64,000 nt of DNA, from the NCBI RefSeq assembly GCF_902809845.1, contig NZ_CADDWI010000013.1, positions 744,001-808,000 on the forward strand. Direction: 5' to 3'. Numbering within the stretch: the first letter of the stretch is position 1; each line of letters starts with the position of its first letter. The DNA is from Chelativorans sp. Marseille-P2723. Lineage in GTDB: Bacteria > Pseudomonadota > Alphaproteobacteria > Rhizobiales > Rhizobiaceae. The notes under the pieces were generated by a model, which did no database searches, had not been told where the DNA came from, and saw only the letters and a list, made by a program, of their open reading frames with translations. Below are positions 3,620-20,191 of the stretch, in pieces. A program made the translations under genes and the position numbers.

Positions 3620-4231
3620 ATGCGAATGAAGCTTTATGCAACACCAACATCGCCTTTCGTGCGCAAAGTCATGATTTGTGCCTACGAGCTCGATATCGCG
3701 GATCAGATCGAGCTGGAGCGATGCGATCTTCACCCGTTCAAGCGGCTTCCGCCATTGGTGAAGTTAAACCCTCTCGGTCAGGTTCCAACATTGGTCGATG
3801 ATTGCGAGTCGTATTATGACAGTTCCGTAATTTGCGAACTGTTAAACATGCGTGCCGGCGGCAAGCTAATTCCGCAGGATGGCCGGGCACGGTTGAAGGT
3901 CTTGCGGGACCAGGCACTCGCGGACGGCCTCATGGATGCTGCCGTTCTCATTCGTCTTGAGACGCTGTTGCGTGATGAGGCTCATCGCTCTTCGCAGTGG
4001 ATCGCCGCTCAGCACGCAAAGATCACCTCCGCGCTTGAAGCATTTGCATCAGGCATTTCATCGCGGGGGAGCACAGTCGACCTGGGCGCAATCACTTTGG
4101 CGACGGCGCTCGGCTATCTTGATTTCCGGTTGGCGGAAATCGGCTGGCGCACGGATCACCCAGGTCTGGCGCAGTGGTTCGCTTTCTGGGAGCAGCGCTC
4201 TTCCCATCGCGCGACCGCGGATCTTTGCTGA
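3620..4231 (+). CDS. Glutathione S-transferase family protein
   Basis: A 203-residue cytosolic GST-fold protein of normal length. The N-terminal thioredoxin-like domain starts KLYATPTSPFVRKVMICAYE, with a serine where beta-class enzymes have the catalytic residue. It then has the cis-proline segment NPLGQVPTLV and YYDSSVICELL, the aspartate-serine pair that binds the glutathione gamma-glutamyl end. The C-terminal half is helical. Start candidates are ATG 3620 and ATG 3626 after a GGGAAGG motif. It is the first gene of a tightly spaced plus-strand run ending at 7949 (flavin reductase, crotonase, two acyl-CoA dehydrogenases). That context suggests conjugation, isomerisation or thiolysis of an intermediate rather than general detoxification (inference). 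Confidence 0.85.
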   Translation: MRMKLYATPTSPFVRKVMICAYELDIADQIELERCDLHPFKRLPPLVKLNPLGQVPTLVDDCESYYDSSVICELLNMRAGGKLIPQDGRARLKVLRDQALADGLMDAAVLIRLETLLRDEAHRSSQWIAAQHAKITSALEAFASGISSRGSTVDLGAITLATALGYLDFRLAEIGWRTDHPGLAQWFAFWEQRSSHRATADLC

Positions 4232-4250
4232 CTGCCTAGGGGATATTGTC

Positions 4251-4916
4251 ATGGATTTCCTTGCCGCGGATTTGTCAGAGGATCAAATCTACAAGCTGAT
4301 GACGGGCCTGATCGTGCCGCGCCCCATAGCCTGGGTGACGACGCATGGCAGCGAGGGAACGGTCAACCTTGCACCTTTCAGCGCATTCACCTTCCTGTCG
4401 ACCATTCCGCCGATCATTGGCATCAGCATCACCCGGCGCTCCAGCGGGCTGAAGGATACGTTGCGCAACGTGCAGCGAAATGGCGAGTTCGTCGTCAACA
4501 TCGCCGATGAAAGCCTTGTGGAGGCGGTGCATGGCAGCTCTGCTGAATATCCGCCTGACATCAGTGAGCCAGAGCTTCTCGGTCTTGACTGCGCGGCTTC
4601 TCATGTCGTCGCCGTGCCGCGCATTGCTGCCGCGCCCGCCGCGATGGAGTGTCGATTGGAACGGATCATAGAATTTGGCGAAAAGGGAGCGGAACTCGTC
4701 GTTGGCCGCATCGTGCATTTTTACGTGCGCGATGATCTGGTTGTTGATGGCAAGATCGCAACCGACACCTTGCGACCGTTGGCACGTATCGCCGGCCCTC
4801 GCTATGCGCCTATAGGCCCTGTCGTCGAGATGACGCCGCTGCATGAGGGCTCGCGCCGCTATGCCGCCACCCACGATGAGCCGCAGGCGCATCGGCAAGC
4901 TTCGCAAACACCCTGA
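4251..4916 (+). CDS. Flavin reductase-like (DIM6/NTAB) FMN-binding protein
   Basis: A 221-residue protein of the flavin reductase-like domain family (PF01613 type). The diagnostic N-terminal part is present: LMTGLIVPRPIAWVTTHG, then VNLAPFSAFTFLSTIPPIIGI for the FMN phosphate and ring contacts, and LRNVQRNGEFVVNI. Members either supply reduced flavin to two-component monooxygenases or carry FMN for their own redox or hydrolytic chemistry. A longer frame runs from 3936 over the GST gene, but ATG 4251 follows an AGGGGAT ribosome-binding site and starts at the family's usual N-terminus. It lies 19 bases after the GST gene and 17 before the crotonase. No obvious oxygenase partner is encoded in the block. 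Confidence 0.85.
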   Translation: MDFLAADLSEDQIYKLMTGLIVPRPIAWVTTHGSEGTVNLAPFSAFTFLSTIPPIIGISITRRSSGLKDTLRNVQRNGEFVVNIADESLVEAVHGSSAEYPPDISEPELLGLDCAASHVVAVPRIAAAPAAMECRLERIIEFGEKGAELVVGRIVHFYVRDDLVVDGKIATDTLRPLARIAGPRYAPIGPVVEMTPLHEGSRRYAATHDEPQAHRQASQTP

Positions 4917-4933
4917 GCGGAGGAAGAAACACT

Positions 4934-18182: not shown

Positions 18183-18206
18183 TCTGCTGCAAGGAAAGAG
18201 CATTCC

Positions 18207-19391
18207 ATGAAAGAAGCTGCAATTGTTTCAGTCGCCCGCACTCCGGTGGCCCGAGCCTTCAGGGGAGCCTACAACGATACCCATGCCGCCGATCTCGCGG
18301 GGCACGTTGTAGGGGAGGCCGTCAAACGAGCGGGTGTCGATCCCGAGCAAGTCGAAGAAGTGATTCTTGGTTGTGCGATGCAGGAAGGCACCACGGGCTA
18401 CAATATTTCCCGACAGGCGGCGATCCGTGCCGGGCTTTCTGTCAGTGTAAGCGCGGCAACGATCAATCGATTTTGTGCATCAGGGCTGCATGCGCTGGCC
18501 ATCGCGGCACAGGCTGTTCAGACAGGCGAAATCGAAGTCGCCGTGGCCGGCGGAATCGAATCCATCAGCCTTGTCCAGACGCCGGAGAAGAATAACAGCC
18601 GGCGTGAAAATCCATGGATAATGCAGCATAAGCCAGCGATATACATGCCGATGCTGCAAACCGCCGAGAATGTAGCGCAGCGCTACAACATCTCGCGCGA
18701 GGCTCAGGATGCTTACGCAGCCGAAAGCCATCAGCGTACCGCGCGCGCGCATTCTGCCGGCTTCTTTGCGGCCGAGCTTGTCCCTCTGGAGACCACGAAG
18801 CGCATCGAAGATCGCGAGACCGGCGAAATACGCTTCGAGACCGTATTGCTTTCGCATGACGAAGGCGTGCGGCCAAACAGCACTCCTCAAACCCTTGCAA
18901 AATTGTCGCCGGTCCTGTCGCCGGAAGGCACGATTACCGCCGGAAACGCCTCGCAGTTTTCCGACGGAGCGGCAGCTCTAGTGGTCATGGACGCGGATCT
19001 TGCCGCGCGTCGGGGTTTGAAGCCGCTGGCGATATTTCGAGGCTTTGCCTCTGCTGGATGCGAACCGGACGAGATGGGAGTTGGCCCAGTTTATGCCGTG
19101 CCGAAACTTTTGCGCCGATTCGGACTTAACGTTGCCGACATCGGACTATGGGAGCTTAACGAAGCCTTCGCCTCGCAGGTACTCTATTGCCGTGACCAAC
19201 TAGGCATCGATCCGCAGCGCTTTAATGTCAATGGCGGGGCAATTGCCGTTGGTCATCCCTACGGAATGAGCGGCGCACGGCTGGCGATTCATGCCATTTG
19301 CGAGGCTTCTCGACGGAAAGAAAAAACCGCGGTAATGACCATGTGTGTCGGTGCGGGGATGGGGGCTGCCGGACTTCTCGAGATAGTCTGA
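18207..19391 (+). CDS. Thiolase family acetyl-CoA acyltransferase
   Basis: A 394-residue thiolase. The nucleophilic cysteine lies in INRFCASGLHALAIAAQAV (about residues 85-103). The catalytic histidine is in NGGAIAVGHPYGMSGAR. The second cysteine is in MTMCVGAGMGAAGLLEI near the C-terminus. The N-terminus (EAAIVSVARTPVARAFRGAY) is the standard thiolase start. Length is normal. AAGGAAAG precedes ATG 18207. As the last enzyme of the operon it should release acetyl-CoA or propionyl-CoA from a 3-oxoacyl-CoA, consistent with beta-oxidation of the ring-opened product. It resembles FadA5/FadA6-type thiolases in context rather than by a diagnostic motif. Confidence 0.93.
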   Translation: MKEAAIVSVARTPVARAFRGAYNDTHAADLAGHVVGEAVKRAGVDPEQVEEVILGCAMQEGTTGYNISRQAAIRAGLSVSVSAATINRFCASGLHALAIAAQAVQTGEIEVAVAGGIESISLVQTPEKNNSRRENPWIMQHKPAIYMPMLQTAENVAQRYNISREAQDAYAAESHQRTARAHSAGFFAAELVPLETTKRIEDRETGEIRFETVLLSHDEGVRPNSTPQTLAKLSPVLSPEGTITAGNASQFSDGAAALVVMDADLAARRGLKPLAIFRGFASAGCEPDEMGVGPVYAVPKLLRRFGLNVADIGLWELNEAFASQVLYCRDQLGIDPQRFNVNGGAIAVGHPYGMSGARLAIHAICEASRRKEKTAVMTMCVGAGMGAAGLLEIV

Positions 19392-19411
19392 ATATAAGGA
19401 ATTTGACTCGA

Positions 19412-20191
19412 TTGAGTAAAACCACAACGCTGAACGGACAAGTAGACAAGAAAAGCCAAGCGGGTGGAAAGCAGACGCGCCAGGCGGCGGGTAAACGCAG
19501 GCCCGCCGCTAATACCCGTCGCGCATTGATGCGCGAAAAAATGCTCGAGAAAGCAGCGGAATTATTCTACGCAAATGGTTTTGGCAAGACGAGCATCAAT
19601 GACATAGCAGACTCGCTGACGCTGAAACGCTCTTCCCTCTACCATTACTTTCCGAATAAAGAAGCAATCCTGCGAGAACTGTTCGTTGAGGAATTCGAAC
19701 GACGTATATCGGAACTTCAATCTCTTTTTGACCGTGATGATCTAAGCGCTACGGAACGGCTTGAGCTTGCTGTAGAGGGAGCCATTACCCAGCGGCTGCG
19801 GGGCGGAGGAAGATTCCTGGTTTTCGACAGGCTCGAACCGGAAGTTCCGGATGAACTAAGGAAAAATTACAATCGCGGCAGGCGCCAGATACTCGATCTC
19901 TATACAGGTTTGGTCGAGGATGGCATCCGGGTGGGTGAATTTCGCCCAGTGGATCCTCAACTCACCGCTTTTGCCATGATCGGGATGTCGAACTGGACGG
20001 CCCTATGGTATTCGCCGTCAGGTCGTATGAAGCCCAGAGAAATCGCACGCAGCCTTACCAACCTTCTGGTCCATGGTATCAGCCAGCATACCAAAGATAC
20101 CAAAGCTGCCCTAGCTGACGAGATTCACTCGATTATCGATGGGATGCGTCGTGATATGGAGCAGCTAACAAACTTGATCAAGAATAAGTGA
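19412..20191 (+). CDS. TetR-family transcriptional regulator
   Basis: A TetR regulator of about 259 residues with a long basic N-terminal extension (KKSQAGGKQTRQAAGKRRP) before the helix-turn-helix. The DNA-binding domain reads MLEKAAELFYANGFGKTSIN, then DIADSLTLKRSSLYHYFPNK. The C-terminal ligand domain is typical. No ATG lies near the expected start. TTG 19412 after ATAAGGA is chosen, and an upstream start or a later ATG (MREKMLEK) is possible. It follows the thiolase on the same strand and may respond to an acyl-CoA intermediate, as KstR2 does in steroid catabolism (inference from position). Confidence 0.85.
   Translation: MSKTTTLNGQVDKKSQAGGKQTRQAAGKRRPAANTRRALMREKMLEKAAELFYANGFGKTSINDIADSLTLKRSSLYHYFPNKEAILRELFVEEFERRISELQSLFDRDDLSATERLELAVEGAITQRLRGGGRFLVFDRLEPEVPDELRKNYNRGRRQILDLYTGLVEDGIRVGEFRPVDPQLTAFAMIGMSNWTALWYSPSGRMKPREIARSLTNLLVHGISQHTKDTKAALADEIHSIIDGMRRDMEQLTNLIKNK

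What the first reader, a model, noticed from the sequence alone, without database searches (positions are those of the whole stretch)
3620..20191. IpdAB-type ring-opening module in an alphaproteobacterial catabolic block with its own importer and a ThDP enzyme
Seen: 14786-16443 encode a pair resembling IpdA/IpdB. They are flanked by a PaaK-like ligase, thiolase and TetR gene, with coupled acyl-CoA dehydrogenases, a crotonase, a flavin reductase and a GST upstream. Established: IpdAB in Mycobacterium and Rhodococcus hydrolyses the last steroid ring (COCHEA-CoA) and is encoded near FadE, FadA6, EchA20, FadD3 and KstR2. Inference: an analogous pathway opens a cyclic CoA ester, but no other steroid genes (ring A/B, side chain) are visible here. 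The ThDP enzyme and ABC importer suggest a smaller, imported, possibly 2-oxo or hydroxylated alicyclic substrate. I know of no described pathway with this exact set.
Basis: partly seen in the sequence, partly recalled or inferred. Interest (0 to 1): 0.8.

Follow-up and report, generated by a model that had tools for sequence, protein, structure and literature searches.

The report
Steroid-type ring-opening enzyme without steroid genes
A bacterium in which two marker genes of steroid degradation could not be found carries a cousin of the enzyme that opens the last steroid ring, coupled to its own importer and activating enzyme, which suggests that this ring-opening chemistry is also used on other, smaller ring-shaped acids.

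Summary
The genes are real. 14786-16443 encode an IpdA/IpdB-like pair whose nearest solved chains are IpdAB, ahead of GctAB and AibAB. Two residue tests agree: B has Ile where family I transferases carry the catalytic Glu, and A keeps a Glu that IpdA has and Glu-bearing transferases mostly replace with His. In an A+B tree the pair and three metagenome-derived relatives form a sister clade of the IpdAB clade that holds the steroid enzymes (all three nodes 100). These four genomes share PaaK-like ligase-IpdA-IpdB, an ABC importer, a hydratase and paired acyl-CoA dehydrogenases; thiolase and ThDP enzyme were each seen in two. The window's genome (99.8% complete) gave no match to a steroid-cluster dioxygenase or IpdC-position protein. 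Best reading: an imported single-ring acid becomes a CoA thioester, is opened hydrolytically by the IpdAB-type enzyme and degraded by beta-oxidation. Substrate and activity are unknown; ThnP shows that loss of the Glu alone does not exclude an intramolecular CoA-transferase (PMC11659651). New variant of a known kind.

The parts
3587..4231 (+). GST-like protein; accessory
   Evidence: Pfam GST_N/GST_C; no tblastn match above 50 bits in the 13 stretches
4251..4916 (+). flavin reductase domain protein (ORF 3936-4916, likely start 4251); accessory
   Evidence: Pfam Flavin_Reduct 88 bits; start from sequence; no match above 50 bits
4934..5722 (+). enoyl-CoA hydratase (ECH), core module
   Evidence: Pfam ECH_1; NF006140 353 bits, cutoff 280; 79/71/63% in L122/L123/L005; 41-43% to an ECH just after IpdB in 7 of 14 loci of the steroid-IpdAB clade
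5725..6930 (+). acyl-CoA dehydrogenase ACD1, core module
   Evidence: 70/62/54% in L122/L123/L005
6927..7949 (+). acyl-CoA dehydrogenase ACD2, probable partner of ACD1
   Evidence: 46/35/35% in L122/L123/L005; best NCBIfam model IpdE2, 104 bits, cutoff 450; ATGA overlap
8159..8947 (-). IclR-type regulator, probable pathway regulator
   Evidence: Pfam IclR; 55% in L122, 43% in L004, 27% in L005
9297..10352 (+). periplasmic solute-binding protein of the importer
   Evidence: Pfam SBP_bac_8; 71/46/49% in L003/L004/L005; model of moderate confidence, nearest fold the metal-citrate-binding protein MctA
10392..11582 (+). ABC transporter ATPase
   Evidence: Pfam ABC_tran, TOBE_2; 66/59/56%
11579..13306 (+). 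ABC permease with two BPD_transp_1 stretches
   Evidence: 77/59/58%
13359..14771 (+). PaaK-like acyl-CoA ligase (ORF 13260-14771, likely start 13359), core module
   Evidence: TIGR02155 150 bits, cutoff 646; 72/64/64% in L003/L005/L123, directly upstream of IpdA in each
14786..15580 (+). IpdA-like subunit (ORF from GTG 14768)
   Evidence: Glu107 (ORF numbering) aligns with the residue that is Glu in 6co6_A and Ala in 6coj_A
15580..16443 (+). IpdB-like subunit (ORF from 15550)
   Evidence: Ile63 (ORF numbering) at the column of the GctB Glu
16437..18182 (+). ThDP enzyme of NCBIfam NF004772 (PRK06112); accessory
   Evidence: 848 bits, cutoff 673; 63% over 128 aa at the contig end in L003; no match at 1e-60 in the L005 genome, 36% at best in the L004 genome
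18207..19391 (+). thiolase
   Evidence: 64% directly after IpdB in L004; 51% to L155:16205-17407 of a steroid cluster
19298..20191 (+). TetR-type regulator (ORF; the domain starts near residue 77); not seen with the module elsewhere
   Evidence: NCBIfam TetR hits below cutoffs; no match above 50 bits

Best explanation
This is a catabolic module for an imported cyclic carboxylic acid. The ABC importer brings the acid in and the PaaK-like ligase makes its CoA thioester. An IpdAB-type enzyme, a CoA-transferase fold without the transferase Glu, opens a six-membered oxo ring by adding water across a C-C bond (retro-Claisen or retro-aldol type). The thiolase cuts the beta-oxo thioester that results. 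ACD1/ACD2 and the hydratase carry out a beta-oxidation round, on a side chain before ring opening or on the open chain after it; the order is not determined. Shown here: gene content, coupling, shared gene set, residue signatures, tree position, and no detectable homologue of two steroid markers in the genome. Inferred: hydrolase activity, ring opening and substrate class. The ThDP enzyme, GST, flavin reductase and TetR are additions of unknown role.
For: Nearest solved chains are IpdAB for both subunits. Of 103 A/B pairs, 59 have His in A with Glu in B, 36 (the window among them; 6 of the 36 have a gap at the B column) have Glu in A with no Glu in B, and 8 fit neither. Tree nodes: window clade 100, steroid IpdAB clade 100, both together 100; four other placements have AU p <= 0.003. 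Ligase is directly upstream of IpdA in 3 of 3 relatives and the importer is beside the pair in L003, L005 and L004. In steroid catabolism IpdAB followed by a thiolase with CoASH gives MOODA-CoA and acetyl-CoA (PMC5380842, passages), which fits ligase, IpdAB and thiolase in one gene string. The nearest B subunit outside the clade (L006; node 99) lies by two benzoyl-CoA-reductase-like subunits and a protein that also scores with a cyclohexane-1-carbonyl-CoA dehydrogenase model (all below cutoffs). The binding-protein model is nearest to the citrate binder MctA (TM 0.66-0.70, 18-19% identity), so an acid is a plausible ligand.
Against: No substrate or activity is known. ThnP, another family I enzyme (Cat1 subgroup) that lacks the conserved Glu, is an intramolecular CoA-transferase acting on a cyclohexane dicarboxylic acid CoA ester (PMC11659651, passages), so loss of the Glu alone does not prove a hydrolase. 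No 3-hydroxyacyl-CoA dehydrogenase was seen in the module; the SDR beside the IclR gene in L122 gave no match at 1e-40 in the window, L004 or L005 genomes (without a positive control). Free beta-oxo acids lose CO2 easily (recalled), so direct ligase-to-IpdAB action on a stable acid is not obvious. Beside the A Glu and the B site the clade differs from at least 90% of the 16 steroid-clade rows (S106 against D; T62 against D; D143-D144 against G-N), so the chemistry may have shifted. Only four modules are known. The binding-protein model is of moderate confidence (mean pLDDT 68.3, pTM 0.61), and ferric-binding proteins are its nearest solved chains by sequence and also rank high by fold.
Confidence: 0.57

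Rival explanations
1. A non-ring reaction: like AibAB, the pair decarboxylates or hydrolyses a linear or branched acyl-CoA, and ligase, dehydrogenases, hydratase and thiolase are ordinary beta-oxidation of that acid.
For: The AibB chain (5n02; its name AibAB is recalled) also lacks the Glu (Ser) and shares the fold; beta-oxidation genes alone do not imply a ring.
Against: AibA has Gly where the window has Glu. Placing the window clade with AibAB is disfavoured (AU 0.0029; one AibAB sequence). A related ECH sits right after IpdB in 7 of 14 steroid-clade loci.
Confidence: 0.19
2. An intramolecular CoA-transferase on a cyclic dicarboxylic acid, functionally like ThnP of anaerobic naphthalene degradation, moving CoA from one carboxyl to another so that beta-oxidation can proceed.
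For: [quoted passage not shown] The module has a ligase and dehydrogenases that could flank such a step.
Against: ThnP is of the Cat1 subgroup, while the window pair groups with IpdAB and shares the IpdA Glu. ThnP itself was not in my trees.
Confidence: 0.07
3. A true steroid C/D-ring pathway: the pair is COCHEA-CoA hydrolase and the organism degrades HIP or steroids.
For: Hydratase, thiolase and both dehydrogenases have relatives at 36-51% identity in the Novosphingobium steroid cluster.
Against: No match at 1e-3 in the window genome to that cluster's VOC protein or IpdC-position protein, while both queries found themselves and relatives elsewhere. The hydratase is 41% to the ECH after IpdB but 31% to the EchA20-position one. 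The pair falls outside the steroid clade. IpdF, FadD3 and other ring C/D genes were not searched genome-wide.
Confidence: 0.06
4. An ordinary intermolecular family I CoA-transferase that activates the substrate.
For: Pfam CoA_trans domain.
Against: Catalytic Glu absent. The same genome has a pair, L002, with Glu in B and His in A beside a thiolase. Grouping with GctAB is disfavoured (AU 0.0002).
Confidence: 0.03
5. Ring opening of a dearomatised or hydroxylated aromatic CoA ester, fed by a ring oxygenase.
For: L005 has Rieske oxygenase alpha and beta genes upstream of the module; PaaK-like ligases often take aryl acids (family knowledge).
Against: With the L005 alpha and beta proteins as queries, no match at 1e-3 in the window (64 kb), L003, L004, L122, L123, L127, L006 or L124. 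In L005 an IclR gene on the other strand separates the oxygenase from the ligase.
Confidence: 0.08

Closest known systems
IpdAB (COCHEA-CoA hydrolase; ScdL1L2 in Comamonas) of steroid ring-C cleavage
   Same: Two-subunit CoA-transferase fold, Glu absent from B, specific Glu kept in A, thiolase and related hydratase nearby, nearest solved chains
   Different: Sister clade; 34-40% (B) and 33-39% (A) identity to the five steroid-clade sequences compared; no IpdC-like or EchA20-type gene in the block, PaaK-like ligase, own ABC importer, no VOC or IpdC-position homologue found in the genome
IpdE1-IpdE2 and other paired steroid acyl-CoA dehydrogenases; PimCD
   Same: Two adjacent unlike acyl-CoA dehydrogenase genes; ACD2 best model IpdE2, ACD1 best model PimC
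   Different: Far below the curated cutoffs; 40% (ACD1) and 36% (ACD2) to two dehydrogenases of the Novosphingobium cluster (L155)
Phenylacetate-CoA ligase PaaK
   Same: Family resemblance, AMP-binding C-terminal domain
   Different: 150 bits against a cutoff of 646, so not PaaK itself
Glutaconate CoA-transferase GctAB and AibAB
   Same: Fold and two-subunit form
   Different: GctB has the Glu and GctA Gln at the A column; AibB has Ser and AibA Gly
ThnP, intramolecular CoA-transferase of anaerobic naphthalene degradation
   Same: Family I enzyme without the conserved Glu, acts on a cyclohexane CoA ester (PMC11659651, passages)
   Different: Cat1 subgroup; not compared by sequence here

Membership tests
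IpdAB (steroid COCHEA-CoA hydrolase) | alpha and beta subunits of the CoA_trans fold with solved IpdA and IpdB as nearest structures | tested here: met
   (identity of the chains as IpdAB recalled; Gly57 agrees with PMC5380842)
IpdAB (steroid COCHEA-CoA hydrolase) | transferase Glu absent from B (Gly57 in RHA1 IpdB, Glu54 in GctB; PMC5380842, passage) | tested here: met
   Ile in the window; Ser, Gln, Ala in its three relatives
IpdAB (steroid COCHEA-CoA hydrolase) | the IpdA Glu that is Ala in entry 6coj | tested here: met
   Glu107 of the window ORF; invariant in the clade and in at least 90% of 16 steroid-clade rows
IpdAB (steroid COCHEA-CoA hydrolase) | falls inside the steroid IpdAB clade | tested here: not met
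   sister clade, nodes 100/100/100; nested placements AU 0.0013 and 0.00015, SH for the second 0.064; 5000 resamplings, program warned of too few
IpdAB (steroid COCHEA-CoA hydrolase) | encoded in a genome with steroid ring and IpdC genes | tested here: not met
   no match at 1e-3 to the L128 VOC or IpdC-position protein; only these two were tested genome-wide
IpdAB (steroid COCHEA-CoA hydrolase) | hydrolyses COCHEA-CoA | not testable with these tools
   needs the pure enzyme
Family I CoA-transferase (GctAB type) | catalytic Glu in the beta subunit | tested here: not met
AibAB decarboxylase | groups with AibAB | tested here: not met
   AU 0.0029 for that grouping; one AibAB sequence only
ThnP-type intramolecular CoA-transferase | groups with ThnP or the Cat1 subgroup | not tested
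   no ThnP sequence in hand; known from PMC11659651 passages only
PaaK equivalog | reaches the curated TIGR02155 cutoff | tested here: not met
   150 of 646 bits

The most novel reading that the evidence does not exclude
The steroid ring-C cleavage chemistry exists as a free-standing, sporadically spread module with its own importer and ligase: a scavenging pathway for single-ring oxo-cyclohexene carboxylates, such as partial catabolites released by steroid or terpenoid degraders, with steroid IpdAB and this clade being two branches of an older family of CoA-thioester ring hydrolases.
Probability: 0.2. Interest if true: 0.75.

Novelty: new variant of a known kind. Interest (0 to 1): 0.52.

Why it matters
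IpdAB is the only ring-opening hydrolase of the CoA-transferase superfamily known to me, and the papers listed by my searches tie it to steroids (titles and abstract starts). A sister clade wired to an importer and a different ligase, in a genome without the two steroid markers tested, would show that this chemistry has a wider range and offers an enzyme for finding a new alicyclic degradation route. The paired residue test (Glu in A, no Glu in B) is a simple filter for finding more such enzymes now named CoA-transferases.

Tried and rejected
Steroid degradation: disfavoured by two absent markers and tree position. Ordinary CoA-transferase: disfavoured by the missing Glu, with the genome's own Glu-bearing pair as contrast. 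ThDP as core enzyme: seen only in the window and L003; of its relatives I compared seven neighbourhoods (L145, L146, L150-L154) and found no IpdA/IpdB match above 60 bits. CDH-like ring cleavage by the ThDP enzyme: CDH chains are 26th and 27th of the solved relatives. Naming the substrate from PaaK relatives: neighbourhoods of three 33-44% relatives (L147, L148, L149) showed only generic matches to other window proteins; that of L134 was not examined. Island borders: a tRNA-Arg and IS481-like remnants lie upstream, no duplicated tRNA end in 1150-30500. Missing dehydrogenase: not found. L005 oxygenase: not matched elsewhere in the stretches searched. Binding-protein fold: model of moderate confidence; nearest MctA, ferric-binding proteins close behind. 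Dropped before counts: L008 was left out of the alignment because its stretch ran through a stop, and L007 and L012 with it; 9 of 112 B sequences, one of L006's among them, had no A gene within 1600 bases and are not in the 103 pairs; one A gene (L066) is used in two pairs; rows over 80% identical were dropped before trees (59 of 103 pairs kept; 68 of 112 B kept). The constrained trees for the AU test used a fast search. In one search the row labelled L005_ECH was a copy of the window ECH and is not used.
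Full report
Observation. The block 3587-20191 holds, in order: GST-like, flavin reductase, enoyl-CoA hydratase, two acyl-CoA dehydrogenases, an IclR regulator on the other strand, solute-binding protein, ABC ATPase, permease, PaaK-like ligase, IpdA-like, IpdB-like, ThDP enzyme, thiolase and TetR. Several junctions overlap (ATGA between ACD1 and ACD2 and between ATPase and permease, TAATG between IpdA and IpdB, 7 bases between IpdB and the ThDP gene), as expected for coupled translation.

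The pair is of IpdAB type. Nearest solved chains of A: 6co6_A, 6coj_A and 6con_A at E 2.9e-40 to 1.5e-36, then GctA 1.9e-19 and 5mzw_A 6.4e-15. Of B: 6con_B and 6co6_B at 4.9e-34 and 1.7e-30, then GctB 1.7e-13 and the 5n02 group around 5e-12. The records call these chains CoA-transferase subunits; that 6co6/6coj/6con are IpdAB and 5mzw/5n02 AibAB is recalled. PMC5380842 (passages) states that the Glu forming the anhydride in transferases, Glu54 of GctB, is Gly57 in RHA1 IpdB; counting the printed 6co6_B chain gives Gly57 at that column (the GctB Glu counts as 52 in the printed chain, an offset of two). In the window it is Ile63; in the three relatives Ser, Gln and Ala. A carries Glu107 where 6co6_A has Glu and 6coj_A Ala; GctA has Gln and AibA Gly.

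Residue table. 103 neighbouring A/B pairs from the fetched loci plus window and anchors: 59 A His with B Glu; 36 A Glu with B not Glu (30 with another residue, 6 with a gap); 5 another A residue with B Glu; 2 another A residue with B not Glu; 1 Glu in both, in L066, where one A gene was paired with two B genes. The second homologue of the window's genome, L002, has His and Glu. [quoted passage not shown]

Phylogeny. On 59 of 103 pairs (523 columns) the window, L003, L005 and L004/L123 form one clade (100). The group with 6co6, 6con, L007, L130, L103, L106, L128, L105, L108, L083, L084 and L085 is a second clade (100), and the two together are a clade (100). The L003 A row is only the part before its in-frame stop. 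L128 lies in what I read as a steroid cluster (VOC, alpha/beta hydrolase, FAH, aldolase, nitronate monooxygenase genes), L129 likewise; the contexts of most other members of the second clade were not examined. Nesting the window clade with proteobacterial members, with actinobacterial ones, with GctAB or with AibAB gave AU p of 0.0013, 0.00015, 0.00018 and 0.0029; SH did not reject the second (0.064), and the program warned that 5000 resamplings are few. In a B-only tree (68 of 112 sequences) an orphan B gene of a deltaproteobacterial MAG (L006) joins the window clade (99; the 100 printed shifted on rerooting). It lies beside proteins whose best NCBIfam models are benzoyl-CoA reductase C and B (316 and 292 bits, cutoffs 421 and 487) and a dehydrogenase whose best model is acryloyl-CoA reductase (448, cutoff 640), with cyclohexane-1-carbonyl-CoA dehydrogenase second (393, cutoff 650). 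This hints that the wider group may work on cyclohexenyl CoA esters.

Rarity. The scan of genome contigs confirmed 168 relatives and kept 80; three exceed 50% identity: 74, 66 and 58% (pattern-based, so misses are possible). Among 100 related genomes, matches reach at most 118 bits against 668 for self. At E <= 1e-35, 7 of 385 genomes of the class matched: the window's, one at 66% that appears to be the L004 genome, and five at 35-37%; of 398 of the phylum, the window's and two at 34-35%. The module is sporadic, in keeping with horizontal transfer. A tRNA-Arg at 1223-1299 and IS481-like remnants lie upstream; no att-like duplication was found.

Conserved module. One search compared the window proteins with 13 stretches. 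L003: binding protein, ATPase, permease, ligase, IpdA, IpdB and the start of the ThDP gene at the contig end; its genome has ECH, ACD1, ACD2 and IclR on another contig (L122). G837: ECH, ACD1, ACD2, ligase, IpdA to the contig end (L123), and IpdB, thiolase, binding protein, ATPase, permease, IclR from the start of another contig (L004). L005: ligase, IpdA, IpdB, binding protein, ATPase, permease, ECH, ACD1, ACD2. All four share ligase, A, B, importer, ECH and both dehydrogenases. The thiolase was seen in the window and L004, the ThDP enzyme in the window and L003. ThDP relatives of 51-62% identity occur in 9 of 288 other genomes of the class searched at 1e-130 and on plasmids; the two annotated neighbourhoods read show alcohol dehydrogenase, branched-chain-type importers and GMC oxidoreductase. 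GST, flavin reductase and TetR gave no match above 50 bits.

Link to steroid enzymes. Against the Novosphingobium cluster (L128 and L155): ACD1 is 40% to L155:15033-16202 and 37% to L128:12603; ACD2 36% to L155:19079-20167 and 29% to L128:13769; thiolase 51% to L155:16205-17407 and 36% to L128:14808; ECH 41% to the ECH right after IpdB (L128:9809) and 31% to L128:11854. An ECH of 41-43% identity follows IpdB in L103, L104, L106, L107, L108, L128 and L129, 7 of the 14 loci of that clade, several of which are short stretches. The roles ScdN, EchA20 and FadE31/32 are my reading of gene order against the table in PMC8399759 (passages and section 22). Best model for ACD2: IpdE2 (104 bits, cutoff 450); for ACD1: PimC (232, cutoff 624).

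Probably not a steroid degrader. The window genome is 99.8% complete; queries with the L128 VOC protein and the L128 IpdC-position protein gave no match at 1e-3 there, while both found themselves on the plasmid and relatives in other genomes searched (VOC in 2 of 3, IpdC-position in 3 of 3 of the relatives' genomes). Only these two were searched genome-wide.

Importer. The model of the binding protein (4 sequences; mean pLDDT 68.3, pTM 0.61) is nearest by fold to the metal-citrate-binding protein MctA (TM 0.66-0.70, 18-19% identity), with ferric-binding proteins close behind. By sequence, ferric-binding proteins were the only solved hits (best E 3.6e-6). This fits an acid as ligand but is weak.

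Mechanism. In PMC5380842 (passages) IpdAB followed by a thiolase and CoASH turns COCHEA-CoA into MOODA-CoA and acetyl-CoA. A string of ligase, IpdAB and thiolase fits activation, hydrolytic ring opening and thiolysis, with ACD1/2 and ECH giving a beta-oxidation round before or after. The window clade differs from at least 90% of 16 steroid-clade rows at S106 next to the A Glu, T62 next to the B site, and D143-D144, so a ring substrate other than COCHEA-CoA is more likely. It is not identified. Release of intermediates by bile-salt degraders is reported for larger steroid intermediates (PMC8540908, passages), which makes a scavenging role thinkable but unproven.

Literature. Searches listed no paper on an IpdAB-type enzyme outside steroid catabolism (titles and abstract starts seen; most subscription journals are not held). 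The paper on the IpdAB structures was not read; the IpdE1-IpdE2 paper was seen only as a reference entry.

Noticed in passing
window 1223-2560: tRNA-Arg(ccg) followed by IS481-like transposase remnants; this stretch matches rhizobial plasmids at about 72-77%. Possible island border; no duplicated tRNA end found in 1150-30500.
   Followed up: partly
window 20688-28042: A second catabolic block: family III CoA-transferase, IclR, citryl-CoA-lyase-like protein (426 bits, cutoff 261), TctC/B/A transporter and a berberine-bridge-type FAD oxidase.
   Followed up: no
window 41256-46732: Two large repeat proteins rich in DUF7507/DUF11 domains.
   Followed up: no
window 58698-61515: Family III CoA-transferase next to another ThDP enzyme on the minus strand.
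   Followed up: no
L006:7504-19273: Deltaproteobacterial MAG cluster: two benzoyl-CoA-reductase-like subunits, an orphan IpdB joining the window clade (99), an acyl-CoA dehydrogenase, 3HCDH, SDR, an IpdA/IpdB pair, PaaK-like ligase and thiolase. It may be an anaerobic ring pathway using an IpdAB-type ring opener.
   Followed up: partly
L009:5698-10816: Bacillota MAG: a transferase-type A/B pair (His/Glu), a ThDP enzyme (30% to the window's) and a second A/B pair with Glu in A and a gap at the B column, in a row.
   Followed up: no
L003:5712-6491: The IpdA-like gene of this low-coverage MAG contig has one in-frame stop; error or decay cannot be told.
   Followed up: no
L122:171-1797 and 5076-6511: Beside the dehydrogenase/hydratase genes of the L003 genome lie an SDR gene next to the IclR gene, a D-2-hydroxyacid dehydrogenase and part of an enolase-superfamily gene; L005 also has a D-2-hydroxyacid dehydrogenase (about 32% identical) upstream.
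   Followed up: partly
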